From Planoprotostelium fungivorum (lineage: Eukaryota; Evosea; Variosea; Cavosteliida; Cavosteliaceae), in NCBI GenBank assembly GCA_003024175.1, contig MDYQ01000237.1, forward strand, positions 1-64,000: 64,000 nt of DNA, read 5' to 3'. Under the pieces are notes generated by a model that saw nothing but the letters and a program-made list of their open reading frames with translations, searched no databases and had not been told where the DNA came from. Positions within the stretch are counted from its first letter, which is position 1, and each line of letters opens with the position of its first letter. The translations under genes were made by a program, and so were the position numbers. Positions 33,401 through 45,900 of this stretch are shown here, in pieces.

Positions 33401-34639
33401 TTATTGGAGAGAAACGAAAGTTGCGGTGAGGAATCGTCAGGAGAAATTGTGAGGAGATAGTGACACGAAGTAGGTGAAGCAGATTCGAAGCGATTTCATC
33501 ACCACGGATCAACTGAGGGACTTCTTGTGAGTTGCACGAAGAGATAACAAATGATGACCACAATGCAGGAGTGAAGTGGCTATCCTTCAGAACCTTAGAC
33601 CCCATCCCAACGTTGGTGAGTTGATCCTCTACCCTCCCTCCCTTATCTCTGTCAGTTTTATTCTTGGGTGTATCGTTCCCTCCCTAAACCCCTCGCCATC
33701 ATCACCGGTGCGTAATACCCTGAATCAAAACGTTCGATTGACCGACCCTCAGAATTTTGTGACGGAGGATCTCTGTACAGTGAGTTCATCTAGACATCGA
33801 TCACAATTGATCCTCCTTCAGCTTATCTGAGATCGAATGACGTACCCTATCGAATCAAGAAGGATATGATGATCGGCATCGCTGGGTGGGTCTATGTTTC
33901 GTCTCATCACTCACGTTCGACAGAGGAATGATTCACCTCCACGCAGAAGGTGTCATCCACAGAGATCTCGCCGTGAGAAACATCCTACTGACAAAGTCCC
34001 TCGAGCCCAAAGTGAGCGACTTTGGATTATCCAGAACATCCGATGAGGGCAGTGACGGTGGAGAGACGAAATCAGACATGGGTCCAGTGAAATGGTGCCG
34101 AACGATCCGTTCGATTGGAACTGACGAGCTCAGGATGGCTCCCGAGGCCATGACTCACAGGACTTACTCTTCGAAGTCGGACGGTGAGGTGGAAACGGTT
34201 GATGGATGCTGAACGGTGCAGTCTGGTCGTTTGGCGTGTTGTGCTGGGAGATCTGTACGGTGCAGGATCCTTGGGCTGGATACCAAGTGATGGAGGTGTG
34301 AAATGTCACGTGATGTGGACGATGATGTGACCGATGAAGGTGGCCACGATGGTGTGCACACAGAACAAGACTCTCTCACTTCCTCTCGGTTGTGCAGACG
34401 AGACAGTTTTGCACGTGATGGAGAGATGTTGGCAGAGGCAGCCTGAAGACCGACCGAGCATGAAAGAGATCTTCGCGTGGTTGTTGGGAGAGAAGCTGGA
34501 GAAGACGAAGGAGGAACCTCTTCCACCACATTCGAATAGCCCCCTCCAGATTGAGTACGGTCTTTTGATGATGAGCGTTCTTTCTGACATGAACAGTACC
34601 CACTACAGCAGGATCACCACCAACGAAAACATGAGATAA
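27453..34639 (+). CDS. Receptor-like TKL/tyrosine-like kinase with IPT and beta-helix ectodomain
   Basis: A single-pass receptor kinase. The ATG at 27453 opens a signal peptide (MRRECCILLLLIFTGCAG). Next come IPT/TIG-like domains (RTVTITGSGFSAKGVTLRLG; a second near 28170-28350 with IVTIQGTNLLYY). From about 28620 to 33000 there are many Asn/Ser/Gly-rich repeats of the pectate-lyase/polymorphic-outer-membrane type: each has an N-x-S/A core, a GGA(I/V) turn and an N(N/S)SA segment (SGGAVKV, NNGGAILLHG, GGALMYAG). One membrane helix (GIAVGGGILLIALALIIIIV) and a basic stop-transfer lie near 33140-33230. The kinase has IIGHGAFGVVYSAY, KVAVKQIRSD, MIHLHAEGVIHRDLAVRNIL, KVSDFGLSR, GPVKWMAPEAMTH and RCWQRQPEDRPSMKEI, ending NENMR. 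HRDLAVRN is tyrosine-kinase-like. Sequons are plentiful. Ligand unknown. Confidence 0.9.
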
Positions 34640-35393
34640 TAGAAAATACTTTGTTCTTATGTCAACACCCAAACGCTGGAATTTTCTTTGTTTTAATCGG
34701 CTAATTAAATTCAAACACACCAGTGTCGACACACCATGCAAGATGTTCTCTCAAACGTCCCTCATTCTATCCTCCTGCACGTCCTGAGATCTTGCCTTGA
34801 GATTGGTGATGGTCAGCGCCAGCCCAATTGAATCGAAACTTCTAAATTGTTCTATCTGATGACGGATAACACCTCTCGCTTGGATGGTGATCTGATCTGA
34901 TCTGTGACCCAAGACAACTGTACGGATTCCTCACAGGGAGTGTGATAGCGAGATCCTGACTGGAACTGGATGACCTGCGCCACATCGGCAGAAGAAGGCA
35001 GCGAGTCCAGGGGAGAAAGCGATGGAATGAATCCCTACATGATCTCTTGAGCACTCCAAGTACGGAGGAGAAGGAGAGGTTGCGGCGAGACGCGAAATGT
35101 TTGCGAGATGGATGAGGTACATGAGTCTGACGTAGAGGTGAGGTGCGATGCAGGCGAGGTGAGAAGGGGGGAAATGATATATGAGGGAATGATGTGGAGA
35201 AGAGGGTGAGGACGGGGCGGGAATTGAGCGCTGGGTGCCGGATTGGTGTCGAGTCGTAATTTCAATGGGATTTTATTGTTCAGCAGTTTCCTTGGAACTG
35301 AGAAGATTTCCTTCTCGGACCACATCAGCGACATCCATCTGTTCATTTGAGCACGTAAGAACGAAACCACCAGACTATCTCATCGCAGAGACG
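34640..35393. other. Intergenic region with possible small minus-strand gene or upstream exon
   Basis: 754 bp with no firmly supported gene. On the minus strand an open segment from about 35030 to 34852 reads plausibly (SADVAQVIQFQSGSRYHTPC, then WVTDQIRSPSKREVLSVIR before a stop), possibly preceded by a small intron, but I find no start codon or family. On the plus strand an exon-like frame (from about 35268, MGFYCSAVSLELRRFPSRTT) ends at a good GTAAGA donor joined to CAG just before the ankyrin-kinase ATG, so this may be that gene's first exon or a 5' UTR intron. Confidence 0.3.
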
Positions 35394-37983
35394 ATGACAG
35401 ACAGAAGTGGTCCATCGACCAGAAATCCTTTCATAAGATGGGTTACGCTGAGAAAAAAACACAAAGAGGAGACGCCACCGGGGTCCCCTCTGACCAGAAG
35501 AAAGAGTAGCGGGAGTCTCATTCCTCCTGAGACAAAGATCGTCGGCAGCACCTCTTTCACTGGACCATTATTGGTACCCTCTTCTCTCCTGCAGCCGCCA
35601 CCGAGTCGAACGCTCACAAATAGCTCTCCTGGCAAGTCTAAGAAGAAGAGGACATCCACATCATCCAATGGTCACACACAACAGAAAAACATGTACGGCA
35701 TAGCGTTCGAAGGCAACGACGTGGGAGAGCTTATATTGAGAGAAGCGGAGACGGGACATGATCAAGAGGCTGTTTTTCGATTAATCAAGGCCGATCCCTC
35801 TCTTATTACAAAAGTGGATCTCTCTGAGAGGTCTGCTCTGCATCTGGCTGCCATGACGGGCGCACCAGACATCGTGGAGGTCCTCTTATCGAGTGGTGCC
35901 AATCCAAATGCGGGCGACAAGCACGGCTGGACACCTCTACATCACGCAGCCGCACAAGGACACGAAAAAGTCATGCAGATCCTTTTGGAAGATGTAACTC
36001 TCAAAGGTGATATTATCATATGTGCACGATTCACGAGAGGAGAGAATAAAATGTCAACAGTGGACATGAAGAATCAAGACGGTAACACACCACTCCATTA
36101 TGCGGTCCGCAGGCCAATGACCCAACAGATCTTGGACATGTTCAAACAGGTGAACATTTTTCATCTCTTTCATCCATCTCTGAACAGAAAACAGAGGAAC
36201 GCAGACATCAACGCAGTCAATGACAACGGAGACACACCCCTCCATCACAATTGTGCCTTCGGTTCAGACTCTCTCACCACTCGACTGTTGGTTCGCTACG
36301 GTGCCGACGTCAACATCACAAATCACAACGGAGAGACGTGAGTCCATCGCTTCCATCATCCAACGCGTGCATCATGTCCAATGTCGAGATGAAACTGACG
36401 ATGACACCAGCTGTTTACATTGGGCTGCACGTACTGGCCGTACTGATGTAGCCGAGTATCTCTTGTCTGTGGGGGCGAACAAGAAGGTGGTGGGGAAGGA
36501 CGGCAGACCGATGGATGTGGCCGTACCCATCGAGGCACTGAGGAAAGCTCTCGTTGACTCTGGAAGGAATCTCGTCTTCCCAAAGAACCACAGTCGCTCT
36601 TCCTCCTTACACTCGATAGAAGGTGAGATCACGATGATGATGATGAGATCGTCTCGATGGTGAGATGGATGAGTGACGTCTTCAGGTCCAGTCAACCTGC
36701 CGAACAGTTCGAGCAGTCCGTACAACAGCCAAGGGAATTCTCCACGAAATCCACACATGCTGTCCAACATCAGCATGGACAGCCGCGGCTCAGACAACGT
36801 CGTGCAGGGAACGGTCCTTCCCAAACTCCCCCAACTCAAAGTGGAGAGGAAGGGAAGTCTCCCCGACCTCACACAGACCGACAAAGATTTCGGTGCGTAT
36901 TCAAATCTCTAGAGGTAAACCTGAAACCATGCAGCCGTGCCAGACATTGGATCTCAGTGGATCATCAACCCATCAGAATTGTCGTTCGTAGAGAAGATAG
37001 GCAGCGGTGCCTCGTCGAAGGTGTATAGGGCCGTCTATCGAGGAGAAGACGTGGCCGTCAAGATCTTAAAGAACTACGAACAGAACCTCGTGGAGGATTT
37101 TGTCAAAGAGTTCAACATCATCAGGTGATGTCCACCCGCGATACGATGACCGACGCTGACGCTGTAGACAGTTCGATCCGTTCACCTTACGTCATCTACT
37201 TTTACGGAGTGATACTGAATCCATCCATCTCCATCGTGATGCAGTACTTCCCAAGGAAATCACTGAATCACGTGATGAGAGAGAACTTTTTCATGGGGTG
37301 GGACTTGTTCTTCCGCTTTGCCAAAGAGACCGGACAGTGCATCAACTGCCTCCACAGCTGGAAACCACAAATTGTACATAGAGACTTGAAGTCATTGAAC
37401 CTGCTGGTGGATGAATCGGGCAACGTGAGGATCTGTGACTTTGGTCTGTCGAGGTACACCACCACGGAGGGAAACACACTGGGGAAACTGAGGTGAAGGA
37501 GATCTCGTTACAATGTGATTCACGAGGACAGGGGGACTTTTGCATTCTGTGCACCAGAGTTGTATTTCGGTAAATTGTACACGTCAGCGGCGGACATCTA
37601 CAGTTACAGTATCATATTATGGGAGTTATTGTATCGCACCATCAACGGAGTCTATTCGAGACCCTACGCAGAATTTCCGCAGATTCAACAAGAGATGCAG
37701 ATCATCATACAGGTGTGTCTCATCACCATCGTCCATTGCATCACGATCTGATCATCATCAGGTGTCGAAGAAGAATCTCCGACCGACCATTCCTCTGGGA
37801 TGTCCAGAGCAGCTGTCACAACTGATCGAGAGGATGTGGTCAGCCGTGCCTGAAGAGAGACCCACCTGCCCCGAGATCATCTCCACACTGAAGAAGTTAC
37901 AATCGGATTACGAGGCCGATCCGGTGGAATTCAACTCGGCCGTTCGGTGTCTCAGCATGCGATCTTCACAAGAGTCGACGTAG
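35394..37983 (+). CDS. Ankyrin-repeat TKL protein kinase
   Basis: A cytosolic kinase. After a basic Ser/Pro-rich N-terminus it has at least five ankyrin repeats (SALHLAAMTGAPDIVEVLLS, GWTPLHHAAAQGHEKVMQIL, NTPLHYAVRR, DTPLHHNCAFGSDSLTTRLL, CLHWAARTGRTDVAEYLLSV). A Ser/Asn-rich linker follows (about 36690-36900). The kinase reads VEKIGSGASSKVYRAVYRGE, DVAVKILKN, VMQYFPRKSLNHVM, QIVHRDLKSLNLLVDESGNV, ICDFGLSRY, GTFAFCAPELYFGKLYTSAA, DIYSYSIILWELLY and MWSAVPEERPTCPEIISTLK. The pattern (HRDLKSxNLL, DFGLSR, W-ERP) is TKL/MLK-like. All catalytic residues are present. Ankyrin-TKL kinases are common in amoebae. The start is set at 35394; an upstream exon ending at 35354 could add about 30 residues. 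Confidence 0.9.
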
Positions 37984-38562
37984 AGGAGGCCACGTAGAGG
38001 CATCAATCGCAAGCTCGTGTTATTTATGGAGGAGAGAGAACGTGGGGAAATGAAGAGAGTGTTTGGCTATTTGTCGTTGGTGGATGCATGCACTCTTGTC
38101 CCTGACTCTTCTTCCAACCAGGGGAGTAGTGCTGAGATGTGACTGTGTATTTCTTGGCCTTTCTGCCAGAAACTCTTCGTTTTCATCTACTCTCATCAAT
38201 AAAACAAGGGGATGTTCAGAATCCCTATTCGACGGAGGAGAGAGTGGAGTCAGAGTTCCTCCCTCCTTGGCGTAAGCCAAAAGATCGAAGAAGGACCTAC
38301 GATGGAACCGTCTAAAGGAATACTCATAGATTGTTTCTTCATTCTTCTTGTGTTCGAGATGTGATGATGATCACATCTACCGGAGTGACGTCTATCTTGG
38401 ATCTATGACGAGCTCCCTGCTCTGCTAATTTTTCTCGAAGAGCGATGTTTATTTGGCGCCAAAGATGAGGCGATGGCTGTGCGATAATAAAACCATATAC
38501 AAATTTGTCAATTTACATACAGACTTGCCGATCCTTCTGGCCTTTGTGGGTTCGTATAATCC
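37984..38562. other. Intergenic region, no gene seen
   Basis: About 580 bp downstream of the ankyrin kinase. Only short open frames occur, none protein-like. Near 38480-38520 an AT-rich stretch with AATAAAA may be a poly(A) signal. I see no repeat or RNA gene until the tRNA-like unit. Confidence 0.4.
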
Positions 38563-38652
38563 GGGCGCTCCAATGGCGGAGTGGTAAAGCCCAGCCTCTT
38601 GTTTGAGTGTCTGGCCTTTGCGCTCTCGGGTTCAATGCCGGGCGAAGCGTCC
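38563..38652 (+). tRNA. tRNA-like unit with A and B boxes (degenerate or class II)
   Basis: A segment with pol III internal promoter signals. The A box TGGCGGAGTGG is at 38574 and the B box GGTTCAATGCC at 38629, about 55 nt apart; this spacing fits a tRNA with a long variable arm or an intron. The ends pair: GGGCGCT at 38563 with AGCGTCC at 38646 (one G-U). A five-bp T-like stem (CTCGG/CCGGG) encloses the B-box loop. A T-run follows at 38655-38675, as expected of a pol III terminator. However, the spacing between acceptor and D arm is too long and I cannot build a proper anticodon arm. It may be a decayed tRNA gene, a tRNA-derived short element or an unusual tRNA; no anticodon is assigned. 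Confidence 0.4.
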
Positions 38653-38675
38653 TTCTTTTTTGTTTTTTTCAACAC

Positions 38676-39862
38676 AGAACAAAACGAGAACACGAGGAGA
38701 AAGAAACAACACGCAAGAGAGAGAAACAGCGCACAAGAGAGGTCGATTAGCATGTGGACTCGCTGTGGATTCCCTCGTGTGGCACTCGAATGCTGAGGTC
38801 CTTGGAAATGAGATTGGATGGAATCGTAAGTTTCAAATGATACAGACGTATTGGAACACAATTGTAGGACTGATCGGGAGAAGGATTGCGTTGTGTGACG
38901 GTGAATGATTGAGATTGAGATTTTTTAATCTCGATTCAGGCTCAAATCTCTGGATAGGTTCTGAATAGCACGTCACGATATAGTGATACAACGAACGTGA
39001 CTAATGGTGAGGTCAGAGTGGGAATGGAAATCGAATTGACATCTAATCTTGATACAGGTCCACAATCAGTCAACAATATTCAAATTCTACATCGTTGGAG
39101 CCGAGACAAATGGGAGAGGTGAGTCGATGTTGTTGATGGTGTCCGTGATTATGGAGATGTAGATCACCTCTTATCTCAATACAGATGGATAGTCAGTGAA
39201 CAAGACTTGAACACTAAATCACTAGAATCAAGAAAATGGGGAGAAGTGAGTCTAATGTGATGAACTAGTGTTGTCAAAGACAAAAACAACTATACAGAAG
39301 AGTGAAAAATCTCTTGAGCATGCTTTTGTTCTGTTTGTAATAATATAAAGAGGTGGATGTTTGACTGGACTCAAACAGAGGCACTAAATGACCCATATTG
39401 ATTGAAACACAAATCTAGGACTAAATATGAATGAGACACTCTATGTATTGAAGGTAGGAGCAATTTTGATCAAGATAGGATGCTCTCTGATCTCAAATCA
39501 AGCTTTCAATATTGGATGAAATTTAGAGAGCACAATGATACAATATGTATCTGGACACACTTGGTAGGAAGATGGTCAGCAAGTCAATGTAGAGATCAGA
39601 GATTCAATAAACTGTTGATTATCAAGATCAGCATATTTATGTGATTTTCAGTAGCAATGATAAGAAATTGAGCTAACAAGCAGTTCAATTGGCATCCATG
39701 TTAAGAACCTGCAGAGACAGTCTCAATGCAGTATCCTGAATATGACTTACAATCAGGACAAGTTAACCTAAACATGCAAGACAGCCTAACACACGTCCTT
39801 CATCCATTTTTAATGAAATATTCAAAGGGTGCAAAACATGATATTTGCAAAACTGTTGCAGA
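38676..39862. other. AT-rich non-coding block, possibly with decayed exons
   Basis: Nearly 1.2 kb clearly richer in A+T than its surroundings, leading into the satellite. A small hairpin (GAGAT/ATCTC) is near 38917-38933. Two short exon-like segments flanked by GTGAG and CAG (about 39058-39119 and 39182-39237) would join in frame to read QSVNNIQILHRWSRDKWERW and then QDLNTKSLESRKWGE; a third (about 39505-39600) contains QYWMKFREHNDTICIW. No start, stop or family is recognised. This could be an unknown gene, or one decaying next to a satellite. Confidence 0.3.
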
Positions 39863-42680
39863 AATAGTTACTAAACCACCGTCCAACCATTACCATCAGA
39901 GATAAAGGCCTCCGTGCGTTAAATCAAAATAGCGCACGCACCATATGCATCGTTTTTGTGAACCGTGACATATACCGTTGGAATCAGCGCAGTTTGCTGA
40001 GTCAGAAACAGGTCAGAAAATAAGTGGTCATGCGGCGTGCGTTATTTGGAAATAGCGCACGCGAGGCCATATTTCATTTAGGGAAGGTGTCATGTCATTG
40101 ATGACAGTTTACCCAGGTGTAGAATTACCTGGGCTACACGGTGGTGTATTCAGTTTTTTCGTCCGGACTAACATAGCAGAGAAAAGTGTAAAATATACCA
40201 TGCGTGCGCTATTTTGATTTAACGCACGCGGGGTCTTATCTCATTTAGGGAGGGTGCCAGGTCTGTTTTCTCAGTTCCCACGCGTAGAGGTACGTAAGAC
40301 CTACGTAGAAATGGTTACTAAACCACCGTCCAACCATTACCATCAGAGATAAAGGCCTCCGTGCGTTAAATCAAAATAGCGCACGCACCATATGCATCGT
40401 TTCTGTGAACCGTGACATATACCGTTGGAATCAGCGCAGTTTGCTGAGTCAGAAACAGGTCAGAAAACTAGTGGTCATGCCACGTGCGTTATTTGGAAAT
40501 AGCGCACGCAAGGCCATATTTCATTTAGGGAAGGTGTCAGGTCATTGATGACAGTTTACCCAGGTGTAGAATTACCTGGGCTACACGGTGGTGTATTCAG
40601 TTTTTTCGTCCGGACTAACATAGCAGAGAAAAGTGTAAAATATACCATGCGTGCGCTATTTTGATTTAACGCACGCGGGGTCTTATCTCATTTAGGGAGG
40701 GCACCAGGTCTGTTTTCTCAGTTCCCACGCGTAGAGGTACGTAAGACCTACGTAGAAATGGTTACTAAACCACCGTCCAACCATTACCATCAGAGATAAA
40801 GGCCTCCGTGCGTTAAATCAAAATAGCGCACGCACCATATGCATCGGTTTTGTGAACCGTGACATATACCGTTGGAATCAGCGCAGTTTGCTGAGTCAGA
40901 AACAGGTCAGAAAAGTAGGGGTCACATGACGTGCGTTAAAAAAAATAACGCACGTGGGCACTTATCACATCTTAGGGATGGTACCAGGTCATTGATGACA
41001 CTTCACCCAGGTACAAAAACACATGGGCTACCCAAAAATGTATTCAGATTTTTCGTCCGGACATTCATAACAGAGAAAAGTGACAATGTACGCTAAAAAA
41101 ATAGCGTACGTGAGAATCTCCGGGGTCATATCTCATTTATGGAGGGTGCCAGGTCAGTTTCCTCAGTTCCATGGGTAGATGTACGTAAGAACTACGCAGA
41201 AATGTAGACTAAACCACCGTCTGACCATTACCATCAGAGATAAAGGCCCGCGTGCGTTAATTTTTTTAACGCACATAACCATATGCATCATTTTTGNCGC
41301 TAAATAATAGCCTACGTAGGCTAAATAGTAGTGTAATATGGACTTTGCTCAAGTTGGGCATCGTTTCTGTGACCTGTGTGACATACCATTGGAATCAGCG
41401 CATCTCAGAGAGTCAGAATCAGGTCAGAAAGTATGACGTGCGTTAAAAAAAATAACGCACATGGGCACTTATCACATCTTAGGGAGGGTACCAGGTCATT
41501 GATGACACTTTACCCAGGTACAAAAACACATGGGCTACCCAAAAATATATTCAGATTTTTCGTCCGGACGTTAGTAACAGAGAAAAGTGACAATGTACGC
41601 TAAAAAAATAGCGTACATGAGAATCTCCAGGTTCATATCTCATTTAGGGAGGGTGCCAGGTCAGTTTCCTCAGTTCCATGGGTAGATGTACGTAAGAACT
41701 ACAAGGAAATGTACACTAAACCACCGTCCAACCATTACCATCAGAGATAAAGGCCCGCGTGCGTTAATTTTTTTAACGCACATAACCATATGCATCATTT
41801 TTGTGAACCAGGACATATACCGTTGGAATCAGCGCAGTTTGCTGAGTCAGAAACAGGTCAGAAAAGTAGTGGTCACATGGCGTGTGTTATTTCCAAATAA
41901 CACACGTGAGGTCATGTCACAGTTTAGGGAGGGTGCCAGCTCACAAACAATACACTAAAAGGTAGAGAGACACATGGCCTACACGCTGGTGCAATCCATT
42001 TTTTTCGTCCTGACATTTGTATCAGAGTAAAGTGAGAATTACGCTAAATAATAGCCTACGTAGGCTAAATAGTAGTGTAATATGGACTTTGCTCAAGTTG
42101 GGCATCGTTTCTGTGACCTGTGTGACATACCATTGGAATCAGCGCATCTCAGAGAGTCAGAATCAGGTCAGAAAGTATGACGTGCGTTAAAAAAAATAAC
42201 GCACATGGGCACTTATCACATCTTAGGGAGGGTACCAGGTCATTGATGACACTTTACCCAGGTACAAAAACACATGGGCTACCCAAAAATATATTCAGAT
42301 TTTTCGTCCGGACGTTAGTAACAGAGAAAAGTGACAATGTACGCTAAAAAAATAGCGTACATGAGAATCTCCAGGTTCATATCTCATTTAGGGAGGGTGC
42401 CAGGTCAGTTTCCTCAGTTCCATGGGTAGATGTACGTAAGAACTACAAGGAAATGTACACTAAACCACCGTCCAACCATTACCATCAGAGATAAAGGCCC
42501 GCGTGCGTTAATTTTTTTAACGCACATAACCATATGCATCATTTTTGTGAACCAGGACATATACCGTTGGAATCAGCGCAGTTTGCTGAGTCAGAAACAG
42601 GTCAGAAAAGTAGTGGTCACATGGCGTGTGTTATTTCCAAATAACACACGTGAGGTCATGTCACAGTTTAGGGAGGGTGC
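39863..42680 (+). repeat. Satellite array with ~447-bp monomers carrying conserved hairpins
   Basis: A tandem array anchored by a recurring segment (aaaccaccgtccaaccat) at 39873, 40320, 40767, 41211, 41718 and 42462, giving spacings of 447, 447, 444, 507 and 744 bp. The first three monomers are very similar; later ones diverge and form a 744-bp higher-order unit. Each monomer has up to three short inverted repeats at fixed places: Ha (39913-39938 and equivalents), Hb (40035-40062) and Hc (40202-40229). Their arms differ between monomers yet stay complementary. In the first two monomers Hc is the exact reverse complement of Ha. A conserved 8-bp palindrome GTCCGGAC lies between Hb and Hc. An N occurs at 41297. 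It is not coding: frames are broken between monomers. Confidence 0.95.
41298..41937 (+). repeat. 640-bp segment duplicated at 42042-42681
   Basis: The sequence after the N at 41297 (starting cgctaaataatagcctacg) repeats 744 bp later with no difference that I could find by eye, up to the end of the array. Each copy includes a 16-bp perfect palindrome (TAGCCTACGTAGGCTA at 41308 and 42052), one Hb and one Hc hairpin, and one full Ha-Hb pair. Such identity beside diverged monomers points to very recent duplication or an assembly artefact at the N. Confidence 0.85.
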
Positions 42681-42973
42681 ATGCTTGAGCAACGTTTCAT
42701 GTTCCAACTGACATTGCACTGGATTTTGCGCTTGCTGCTGAACAAGGTGGATCCTGTTTCGTCTCAGTAGGCTCTGGTGCTGTACAGAGGGTATATCAGA
42801 TCTTATGTAGAGTTTCAGCGCTGTTCGCATGTTGTTAATCAATTTCATTCCATTTGATCAAATCAGCATTTGTGAGTAAAACTAACTGTTATTCCGGCGA
42901 CAACTCGGAGGGCGTTCCTGATCACATCATTTTTCTCATCGAGCAGAACACTCGCGAGGGAGCCTGTTGAGGC

Positions 42974-45900
42974 ATGTTTCGAAAGCTTACGGGCTCCCCA
43001 TCCTTTTCTTCGCCTCCTAGTCGCTCTCACTCGTGGACACCATCAACCGCAGATCCTATCGGTCTGAAGCAAGGTGAGAGGGGTGTAATGAGGATTCAAC
43101 GTTGACAGAGGACGAGGTCTGATTACGATTGGTAACAAAATCAAAAATGGTGAGCCATATTGGGTGGTGTTAGGGGCGGATGCGATAGAATGTTACCCAA
43201 AAAGATTGAATAGAGATATTCCTTGTGGTGAGGTGTGTGATTGTGATAGTGACGTTACGAATCATTGACTGATATCAATAGCCCACAAAACAAATACCGT
43301 TATCAGACGTATCATCCGTATTAGAACCCTCAGTTAAGAACGGTAACTGTCTCAGGATTGAGGGTGTGCATTCATTTCGTAGCTCGCATTTAAGAGTCGG
43401 CAGTCGGTGAACGAGAGAAAGCGCACATGTTCATTGGGATGAGTCAAGAGGAATCCGAATCATGGGGTGCCGCCATTCGATCTGGCATCTTCCTCTGCAC
43501 ATCCGCCGTCTCCACAGAGCAACAGTGAGTTCGTCTCCTTCGTCTACCCGCTCCTCTATTGTCATCAATTGATCATCTCAGAGCCCAGACTGGGCATTGG
43601 CTGCCCGGCAGCATCAAGCACGTGTTGGTTTCCTTTCACATCATACAACAGAACGAATGGAAACACATGAGAGACGAAAGACATTACACTCAGCTCACTC
43701 GACTGGGAGCCGCAGCTTGTCAGGGTGAGAGAGTGCATCTGACATACAGTGACGGAGGCAGTTGCCATCTATACTCGCCTGTTAGGACTGAAGTTGACCA
43801 ACGTGACATCGTGGCACCACCTCAGAGACAAACTGGAGGAATTCTTCAGGATGATGCAGTGAGTGCACCTGATCATCTCATCATCTCATCTTGACCCACG
43901 CATCACTCGATGTGATTCCAATACGCTTCTTCGTGATTGATTTCAATTAGGACTTATTCGTGTACATACAAAGATTCAAGAATGGCTGTCAGCATCAACA
44001 ACCTGATGAACCTCTTGACGAAAATCAAAGGAGAAGTGGCCGAAGAGTTGAGCAATCCCACCATGGTCAGAGCTTACTCGAACACCGCCCCTCCTTCCGT
44101 TCTCAGAAAGGTACATTGACTCGTTGTAGATGAGAGAAACGCTGATGCAAATGCAGTCGGGCGAGATGCACAGTCCGAGACAGAGTCCGAAGCACATCCA
44201 ACAGATCAAGATGAATCTGTCCAAAAGCTTCTCCCAGAACCAAGTGAACTTCCATCGAAATCTCGCGCTCACCCTTTGTAGCTGGAGAAGAAGATCAATC
44301 GACCCACCATCAGCGTGTCGGCCGATGTCATTGCGACGAGCAGACCTCTATCTCCTTCCATCCGCGACAGAGTTCAGAGGAAGGCATCTTGGATTCCCGC
44401 CAAGGCGAGCACTATGAGGGTGAGATTACGGTCACGCGACCTACTCATCTGAAAACAGGAACGGCCGCCTTGCACTATACCGAACGTGGAGACGCTGCCG
44501 AAAGTGGAGTCACCACCACTGGAGCGTAACAATGCAGTGGAAGATCTACTCGGCTGCTGCAAAGATGTGAGTCACCTCCGAATCATCTTCTCACTGATGC
44601 TTATCATCAGATCCTTGTCTGTTCGAAAGACATGGCGGAGTTGATCAATCCCCTCTCTCACATCATCTCCGAGCAGAGTCAAGTCCACGATACAGCGAGA
44701 GATGGTACAAAGTCCGTGCTGAACATGATGAAACACTTGGAACGCGTCAGGGAGGAAGCTGGAGTCGTGGCGGGAAATCTGACCATGCTGGCCGAAGACG
44801 TCAAGGGTGAGTTGATGAGAATTGCACGGGTTGATGGCTCGTTGTAGATGGATTCCAGCAGCTGATCACGGCCGTGCGTGACGTCATCACGACGAAGGAT
44901 CCGTCCAACTTCAGTCGCATCTCGCAGATATCCTCCGCGCAGATTCCAGTCTCCGTTCGTCTCCTCTTGAGAGCATGTCAGGCGGTAGCTGAAGTTCGTG
45001 TGGCAGACAAGAGACTCAGCTACACCCGAGGTGAAGTCGACAGCAGCCTGTCGACATTGTTATCCACGACCGACGTGTGGAAATCTATGGGAAGAATACC
45101 GGAGGGAGGTATAGAGATCCACACCATGGACAACATGATCGAAGCCATTCAAATCAATCGCGACGCTCTCTCTGCCCTGCCCGAACTCCTCAAGGTAAAC
45201 ATCGCTTCTTTCATTTCCTTTTAATTCTCACTCTTATGCAGAAGGGTGACACGTCCTTCCTCTTTGAAGGTCTGAAGAGAGTGGCCAACAGCACGCACGG
45301 TCTGTCTTCCGTGTTGGATCTCCTGTGCATTGACATGGACCGAATCAGAGCAGATTCCTTTGACAGTCCACTGGAGATCACAAATCGACCGAGGAAGAAC
45401 TCACTCGCTCAGGACAAGAGGACTGAACTGAGGAATTGCACACACTTGGTCAACGCCACATCGGTACAACTCTTGGTCGATTCGAAGATGTTCATCTCCA
45501 GCAATTTCTCCAGACCTGATCTCATGCTGGCCGTTCTCAGAAACACCACGGTGTTGCTGTCGCTGCAGAACACCATGATCAACACGTTAAAGTATTATCT
45601 GGACGTAGAGAGTGAGACATTTGCAGAAGAGGGAAGCTGAAATAAGATACAGTGCAGAATTATGACGATCAGATGATGGAAGAAGAAGAGGAAGAAGAGG
45701 AAGAAGAATACTGGATCGAAGAGCCAGATGATTCCAGGAATATCGTGTACGAGGTGAGCATCTACAACGCTGTATATGGATGTCACGTGACGTGGTGCAG
45801 GCGGGAGAGGAGGGAGAGGTTGTGAAGGCGGGAACATTAAACAAGTTGATCGAGAAGCTCACGGCATCACAACTCAACGGTGAGAGTATTCTATTCGAAA

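What the first reader, a model, noticed from the sequence alone, without database searches (positions are those of the whole stretch)
39863..42680. Satellite whose monomers keep hairpins by compensatory changes
The monomers hold short inverted repeats at fixed positions (Ha, Hb, Hc). Arms differ between monomers but remain complementary. Hb is CGTGCGTTA/TAGCGCACG with one G-T in monomer 1 (40036) but CGTGTGTTA/TAACACACG, fully paired, at 41881. Hc is GTGCGCTA/TAACGCAC at 40203 but GTACGCTA/TAGCGTAC at 41594. Loops vary freely (AAATCAAAA, seven A, TTTGGAAA, TTTCCAAA). Paired substitutions are hard to explain by drift alone. Options: selection for an RNA or cruciform structure, a dimeric DNA-binding protein, small-RNA precursors, or a replication process that rewrites imperfect palindromes into perfect ones. 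I know of no described element with this plan.
Basis: seen in the sequence. Interest (0 to 1): 0.75.

Follow-up and report, generated by a model that had tools for sequence, protein, structure and literature searches.

The report
Tandem repeats with rewritten small hairpins
A short run of tandem DNA repeats in a eukaryotic, perhaps amoeba-type, genome carries small hairpins whose arms mostly stay matched, probably because DNA copying rewrites one arm from the other and not because the hairpins have a function.

Summary
The hairpins are real: 18 stem-loops in the array 39860-42680, far beyond chance. The compensatory-change claim is weaker than stated.

- Only 10 distinct stems and 5 distinct 8-bp cores exist. 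Covariation over all ten is above shuffles, but drops to P 0.40 without Hc3/Hc4.
One clean in-register core paired change remains: pair 6 of Hb5.
- Seven of 18 hairpins have a mismatch at pair 8. Ha is an inverted copy of the module.
- An N at 41297 and a 639-bp exact repeat make later copies non-independent.

Best explanation (0.42): replication template switching in quasi-palindromes, plus exchange between repeats. Main sign: Hb5 against Hb1 has a matched arm and an inverted loop, TTTGGAAA/TTTCCAAA. RNA selection is poorly supported. Cruciform selection, hairpin exchange and chance are not excluded. Known kinds of process; modest interest.

The parts
39860..42680 (.). whole tandem array; starts and ends at different phases of the monomer (left edge at AGAAATAG, right edge 29 nt after Hb7)
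39860..40306 (+). monomer 1, type 1, 447 bp
40307..40753 (+). monomer 2, type 1, 447 bp
40754..41197 (+). monomer 3, mosaic: Ha of type 1, Hb and Hc of type 2
41198..41296 (+). incomplete monomer 4 ending at the N
41297..41297 (.). single N, the only one in the window; read as a join of two contigs (inference)
41298..41936 (+). 639 bp identical to 42042-42680 (recent 744-bp unit duplication or assembly duplication)
42042..42680 (+). second copy of the 639-bp identical stretch; ends exactly at the array edge
39899..39940 (-). Ha module, inverted relative to Hb and Hc
40201..40242 (+). Hc module, inverted partner of 39899-39940 (42 nt, 88%)
39912..39939 (-). Ha1 stem-loop (same in Ha2 40359-40386, Ha3 40806-40833); pair 8 mismatched, pair 1 unpaired
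41250..41276 (-). Ha4 stem-loop (same in Ha5 41757-41783, Ha6 42501-42527); core fully paired, pairs 1 and 2 not Watson-Crick
40035..40062 (+). Hb1, loop TTTGGAAA, T-G at pair 8 (Hb2 40482-40509 also has A-C at pair 1)
40929..40955 (+). Hb3, poly-A loop, all 10 pairs Watson-Crick
41436..41462 (+). Hb4 (same in Hb6 42180-42206), C-A at pair 2; 10 nt missing on its left flank
41880..41907 (+). Hb5 (same in Hb7 42624-42651): pair 6 T-A where Hb1 has C-G, pair 8 T-A where Hb1 has T-G, loop TTTCCAAA = inverted loop of Hb1; G-T at pair 1
40202..40229 (+). Hc1 (same in Hc2 40649-40676), C-A at pair 8
41086..41111 (+). Hc3: core fully paired, T-G at pair 2; displaced about 10 nt from the place of Hc1 relative to flanks
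41593..41618 (+). Hc4 (same in Hc6 42337-42362): as Hc3 with T-A at pair 2, all 10 pairs Watson-Crick
42037..42080 (+). Hx, a longer nested palindrome where the 744-bp unit would be expected to have an Hc (placement by inspection)

Best explanation
The array is a short tandem repeat built from a hairpin-bearing module present about three times per 447-bp monomer, one copy inverted. Its arms stay matched mainly because of how they mutate. A point change in one arm gives a G-T or A-C quasi-palindrome. In replication the strand folds back, or switches to the sister strand, and re-copies one arm, sometimes with the loop, from the other. This can make the palindrome perfect, invert the loop, or make a new perfect hairpin beside the old place (as the displaced type-2 Hc might be). 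Exchange between monomers then spreads the forms. Shown here: hairpins, their mismatched and matched forms, the inverted loop of Hb5 against Hb1, Hc3 (T-G) against Hc4 (T-A), the displaced Hc. Inferred: direction of change and the mechanism. No cell function is required.
For: Hb1 to Hb5, in register: 8 direct changes fall to 5 with one inverted block, TATTTCCAAATAA = reverse complement of TTATTTGGAAATA, 0 mismatches (null P 0.043; reverse direction 0.03). As point mutations GG to CC needs two adjacent transversions. Over five hairpin pairs in both directions, 7 of 10 comparisons gain from an inverted block at P < 0.05 uncorrected, lowest 0.003 (Ha4 to Ha1). Hc3 and Hc4 stems differ only at pair 2, T-G against T-A. 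The ten variable arm columns differ by transitions, one also by a transversion (10:1), against 25:28 in four type-1/type-2 flank segments, Fisher P 0.009; the units differ (columns over ten stems against pairwise sites), so this is rough. Published signature: arm homogenisation plus spacer inversion in short inverted repeats (PMC8604942, abstract and section 6 read) and multibase compensatory changes (PMC8794818, abstract with opening of introduction, and discussion, read).
Against: Very few independent events: 5 distinct cores, P 0.10; without the displaced Hc3/Hc4, P 0.40. Three of 10 comparisons miss P 0.05 (0.853, 0.157, 0.067); the ten are five pairs read both ways, no switch penalty was charged (nor in the null), and A/T-rich loops make inverted matches easier. 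The one clear loop inversion is a single case. Seven of 18 hairpins keep the pair-8 mismatch, so correction is not efficient. In the yeast paper only one of ten spacer inversions came together with arm conversion, the combination invoked here for Hb5. The transition bias also fits selection through wobble intermediates. Polarity is unknown; no outside copies were found.
Confidence: 0.42

Rival explanations
1. Hairpins are exchanged between sites by gene conversion or recombination between inverted, palindromic copies. Because the arms are palindromic, donors can enter in either orientation, which flips loops, displaces hairpins and keeps arms matched.
For: Ha1 and Hc1 hairpins are identical 26 of 26 in inverted orientation while their further flanks score like shuffles (right flank z -0.4). 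Monomer 3 is a type-1/type-2 mosaic. The type-2 Hc hairpin is displaced by 11 and 9 nt with anchor distance nearly kept, 61 against 59, as if replaced.
Against: No donor with GTACGCTA or GTGTGTTA arms is seen at another hairpin position of the array, and blastn finds no second copy in the rest of the window (best E 1.8).
Confidence: 0.22
2. Chance and shared descent: a palindromic module was duplicated, and its few later changes happen to look paired.
For: Only 5 distinct cores, P 0.10; without Hc3/Hc4 P 0.40 on 8 stems, 0.42 on 4 cores; sliding by +2 still scores 0.236.
Against: Covariation score on all ten stems: 4/500 shuffles. Monte Carlo from type-1 cores: P 0.059 (Ha), 0.059 (Hb3), 0.004 (Hc), 0.004 (Hb5); from a perfect ancestor 0.002 (Hc), 0.024 (Hb5); the Hc values assume a register that one search does not support, and the Hb3 and Hb5 values may share one change. 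The loop inversion is unexplained.
Confidence: 0.14
3. Selection keeps the hairpins as DNA cruciforms, for example for chromatin or centromere identity.
For: Nine regions folded as single-stranded DNA (eight hairpins and Hx) have z -2.5 to -7.4. A displaced Hc that still forms a perfect hairpin fits selection on shape. Dyad symmetries are reported enriched at centromeres of several species (PMC9070824, abstract and a short significance statement seen; that paper itself finds them enriched only on the fly Y centromere).
Against: Seven of 18 hairpins keep a core mismatch. The array is 2.8 kb between what read as coding regions. Loop inversion is not explained.
Confidence: 0.12
4. Selection keeps an RNA structure or small-RNA precursor.
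For: Monomer 1 folds far better than shuffles as RNA (+ strand z -8.2, - strand -6.0); M3 and M5 too (-3.6 to -7.4).
Against: With hairpins deleted, z is -1.41 to +1.0 on both strands of M1, M3 and M5. + strand mismatches in 10 stems: 6 wobble, 4 A-C, 1 other, no strand bias (P 0.75). No Rfam gathering match in the window; in 38500-43500 only COG2908 RNA at E 0.14, 19.5 bits against a gathering score of 58.7.
Confidence: 0.05
5. The hairpins are operator-like half-sites of a dimeric DNA-binding protein.
For: Symmetric half-sites GTGCGYTA with short spacer.
Against: Spacers of 6, 7 and 8 bp, and half-sites that change to GTACGCTA and GTGTGTTA; the effect of spacing on a dimer is recalled knowledge.
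Confidence: 0.04

Closest known systems
Template-switch mutations in quasi-palindromes (PMC8604942, yeast coding genes; abstract and section 6 read)
   Same: Short inverted repeats with about 10-bp arms and short spacers; arm homogenisation and spacer inversion.
   Different: There single-copy genes across strains with a tree, spacers 2-5 in the inversion table; here tandem repeats of one window without a tree, spacers 6-8 (4 in Hb1 and Hb5 if pairing continues into the loop).
Template switching creating and maintaining RNA hairpins (PMC8794818; abstract with opening of introduction, and discussion, read)
   Same: Compensatory changes explained by copying one arm from the other; perfect new stems in one event.
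   Different: There in RNA genes; the authors call the strongest evidence for maintenance of short stems circumstantial. Here no sign of an RNA gene.
Dyad symmetries in satellite and centromere DNA (PMC13081366, abstract seen; PMC9070824, abstract and significance statement seen)
   Same: Repeats with inverted symmetry able to form hairpins or cruciforms.
   Different: Tribolium symmetries span tens of kilobases in multi-megabase regions; here 10-bp stems in a 2.8-kb array.
Tandemly arrayed MITE-like repeats (recalled; related papers seen only in the listing)
   Same: Ha and Hc of type 1 form a 42-nt inverted pair 260 nt apart.
   Different: No target-site duplication evident in 12 nt on each side (by eye); no lone copy found in the rest of the window.

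Membership tests
Template-switch-shaped inverted repeat | One arm becomes the exact reverse complement of the other | tested here: inconclusive
   Pattern present: Hb5 against Hb1 at pairs 6 and 8, Hc4 against Hc3 at pair 2, but direction of change unknown and pair 1 of Hb5 stays G-T
Template-switch-shaped inverted repeat | Loop (spacer) inversion | tested here: met
   Hb1 TTTGGAAA, Hb5 TTTCCAAA, in register, inverted block with 0 mismatches. One clear case; Ha and Hc loops only suggestive
Template-switch-shaped inverted repeat | Several changes arise on one branch of a tree | tested here: inconclusive
   No tree built; copies few and not independent; no outside copies
Satellite DNA | Head-to-tail tandem array of related monomers | tested here: met
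   447-bp period, 3.1 copies, 90% matches; copies 744 bp apart on the right
Satellite DNA | High copy number and long arrays in the genome | not testable with these tools
   No genome held; no convincing second copy in the remaining 61,080 bases
MITE or terminal-inverted-repeat transposon | Terminal inverted repeats with target-site duplication | tested here: not met
   Inverted pair present; flanks ccattaccatca and atttagggaggg show no evident duplication (by eye)
Structured non-coding RNA | Structure beyond the local palindromes, or match to a known family | tested here: not met
   Hairpins deleted: z -1.41 to +1.0; no Rfam gathering match
Structured non-coding RNA | Transcribed | not testable with these tools
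   No reads available
Dimeric protein operator | Conserved half-sites at constant spacing | tested here: not met
   Spacer 6, 7 or 8; core half-site versions vary
Centromere dyad satellite | Located at the centromere | not testable with these tools
   Single 64-kb window

The most novel reading that the evidence does not exclude
A repeat family in a microbial eukaryote whose monomers are kept by selection for cruciform-forming hairpins: the hairpin is kept even when its sequence changes and its place shifts by about 10 nt (type-2 Hc), so geometry, not sequence, is what is conserved.
Probability: 0.12. Interest if true: 0.65.

Novelty: new member of a known kind. Interest (0 to 1): 0.28.

Why it matters
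Covariation is usually taken as a mark of a functional structure. Here arm matching comes with an inverted loop, a displaced hairpin and copies of the hairpin in both orientations, which points to a copying process. If more copies bear this out, such repeats would let the rate and direction of template switching be measured from many parallel hairpins in one genome, and would warn against reading covariation in repeats as function.

Tried and rejected
Chance palindromes: rejected. Separate insertion of each hairpin: not supported for Ha and Hb, open for type-2 Hc. RNA gene: the strong fold (z -8.2) first seemed to favour it; deleting the hairpins removed the signal. Long-range Ha x Hc pairing: one search shows it largely broken in monomer 3, but that alignment (A3; likewise A1) puts Hc stems out of register. 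A direct check gives 39 of 43 matching positions in M1 and M2, only an 8-nt stretch (7 of 8) in M3, 20 of 25 in the M4 and M6 comparisons; duplex energies -67.2, -67.2, -30.9, -28.8, -28.8 kcal/mol. So it weakens but does not vanish, and I do not use it as an argument. A first template-switch comparison with longer flanks (13 comparisons, no null) was replaced. RNAalifold on three monomers gave 3 of 146 pairs with both sides changed. MITE: no evident target-site duplication. tRNA-like sequence near 38570: ARAGORN none there (with introns, whose only hit is a doubtful tRNA-Arg at 34100-35542 with a 1349-nt intron); Rfam no tRNA match (only RMST_10 at E 10).

More copies: conserved 25-mer in viral contigs and genome contigs, 0 exact matches; conserved 20-mer in viral contigs, 0; monomer 1 by distant blastn in phages and plasmids, no match at 1e-5. 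The E. coli set and metagenomes were not searched.

Literature: 1 of 1 listed; 12 of 12; 1 of 1; 4 of 4; 12 of 12; 15 of 1,311; 15 of 65. No listed title or abstract start describes compensatory hairpins in satellite monomers or template switching shaping them; that is all these searches show. (20 of 26 listed) searched a guessed organism name and did not identify the source.

Full report
What is there. The window looks eukaryotic: frames are broken by what read as introns, and of eight frames scanned, six hit Pfam families (ornithine decarboxylase, ankyrin, Myb, protein kinase, hydrolase and F_actin_bund_C; two had none). An actin-bundling domain of that kind suggests an amoebozoan; that is recalled and inferred, and the species is not identified. 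No genome is held. Between what read by eye as a coding region ending near 38.0 kb and one starting near 43.4 kb lies a tandem array, 39860-42680. Its left part has a 447-bp period; in the right part copies lie 744 bp apart. Blastn finds no convincing second copy in the rest of the window (best E 1.8).

Assembly caution. The only N is at 41297. The 639 bases after it (41298-41936) are identical to 42042-42680, which end exactly at the array edge. Monomer 4 is thus probably a join of two pieces, and the right-hand copies are one recent duplication or an assembly duplication. They must not be counted as independent.

The hairpins. There are 18 stem-loops of the Ha, Hb and Hc kinds. Reading Ha on the minus strand, all look like versions of one module: a 10-bp stem, a loop of 6-8 bases and a short tail. 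Ha is inverted relative to Hb and Hc (42 nt, 88%). The strict pattern occurs 13 times with none expected. Nine regions tested as single-stranded DNA (eight hairpins and Hx) fold with z -2.5 to -7.4.

Do arms covary? On all 10 distinct stems, yes, modestly: 5 of 10 pairs change on both sides (12/500 shuffles), covariation score 0.280 against 0.200 (4/500), though further pair types show no excess (319/500) and a slide of +2 scores 0.236. Permuting right arms gives P 0.0185 for 10-bp stems and 0.10 for 5 cores. Random placement of the observed changes on type-1 cores gives full pairing with P 0.059 (Ha), 0.059 (Hb3), 0.004 (Hc), 0.004 (Hb5); from a perfect ancestor 0.002 (Hc) and 0.024 (Hb5).

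A result against this. The Hc values assume that type-1 and type-2 Hc hairpins are at the same place, and they are not. Measured to flank anchors, the centre lies at 38.5/22.5 in Hc1 and Hc2 and 27.5/31.5 in Hc3, Hc4 and Hc6, with anchor distances of 61 and 59. The Ha and Hb hairpins measured are in register (Hb4 lacks 10 nt on its left). Leaving out Hc3 and Hc4, permutation gives P 0.40 on 8 stems and 0.42 on 4 cores; Hb alone 0.20 and 0.33. What remains in register is one clean double change in the core (pair 6, C-G in Hb1, T-A in Hb5), a variable edge pair (pair 1), and pair 8, where type-1 copies are mismatched (T-G or C-A) and type-2 copies matched. All seven type-1 hairpins of 18 carry that mismatch.

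What process? Signs of copying between arms: Hb5 against Hb1 has the loop inverted (TTTGGAAA, TTTCCAAA) and the core arms matched; one inverted block cuts the changes from 8 to 5 (P 0.043 and 0.03 in the two directions); over five pairs in both directions 7 of 10 comparisons are below 0.05 uncorrected. Hc3 has T-G where Hc4 has T-A at pair 2. The displaced type-2 Hc is a perfect or near-perfect hairpin in a new place. Ha1 and Hc1 are identical 26 of 26 in inverted orientation while further flanks score like shuffles, so hairpins also seem to be copied between sites. Arm homogenisation and spacer inversion are the published signature of template switching in short inverted repeats (PMC8604942, abstract and section 6), and template switching has been proposed to create and maintain hairpins (PMC8794818, abstract and discussion). 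The events here are few, and direction is unknown.

What does not fit a function. With hairpins cut out, RNA folding of monomers 1, 3 and 5 is near shuffles on both strands (z -1.41 to +1.0) against -3.6 to -8.9 with them; 20 control stretches from the first 38 kb gave -1.96 to 2.72. + strand mismatches are 6 wobble, 4 A-C, 1 other, so no strand stands out. Spacers of 6, 7 and 8 and changing half-sites speak against a rigid dimer site. A cruciform role is not excluded; a hairpin that survives a shift of place could even fit it.

Arm changes are transitions in ten variable columns, one with an added transversion, against 25 and 28 in four flank segments (P 0.009; two further segments against monomer 4 gave 11:9 and 16:17). 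This fits G-T or A-C intermediates under copying or selection and does not decide.

Verdict. The hairpins are confirmed; the compensatory claim is only partly confirmed. Most likely (0.42) template switching within quasi-palindromes plus exchange between repeats shaped them: a new instance of known processes in an otherwise ordinary tandem repeat. More copies from the source genome would decide.

Noticed in passing
41297; 41298-41936 and 42042-42680: Single N followed by 639 bases repeated exactly 744 bp later, ending at the array edge; probable scaffold join and possible assembly duplication.
   Followed up: partly
42037-42080: Longer nested palindrome Hx (contains CCTACGTAGG) in the 744-bp unit; the piece after the N starts inside the copy of this palindrome.
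   Followed up: partly
40190-40245 against 41075-41135: Hc hairpin displaced by 11 and 9 nt between monomer types while the distance between flank anchors is nearly unchanged; origin not explained.
   Followed up: partly
38565-38665: tRNA-like stretch with what look like pol III A-box and B-box sequences (recalled consensus) and a T-rich run after it; no tRNA by ARAGORN there or Rfam; possibly a tRNA-derived repeat.
   Followed up: partly
38700-39860: AT-rich stretch left of the array with no frame over 108 codons in 38600-39900; might be a decayed gene or element. Its frames were not searched against families.
   Followed up: no
40754-41197: Monomer 3 is a mosaic of the two monomer types, switching between Ha and Hb, which suggests recombination inside the array.
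   Followed up: partly
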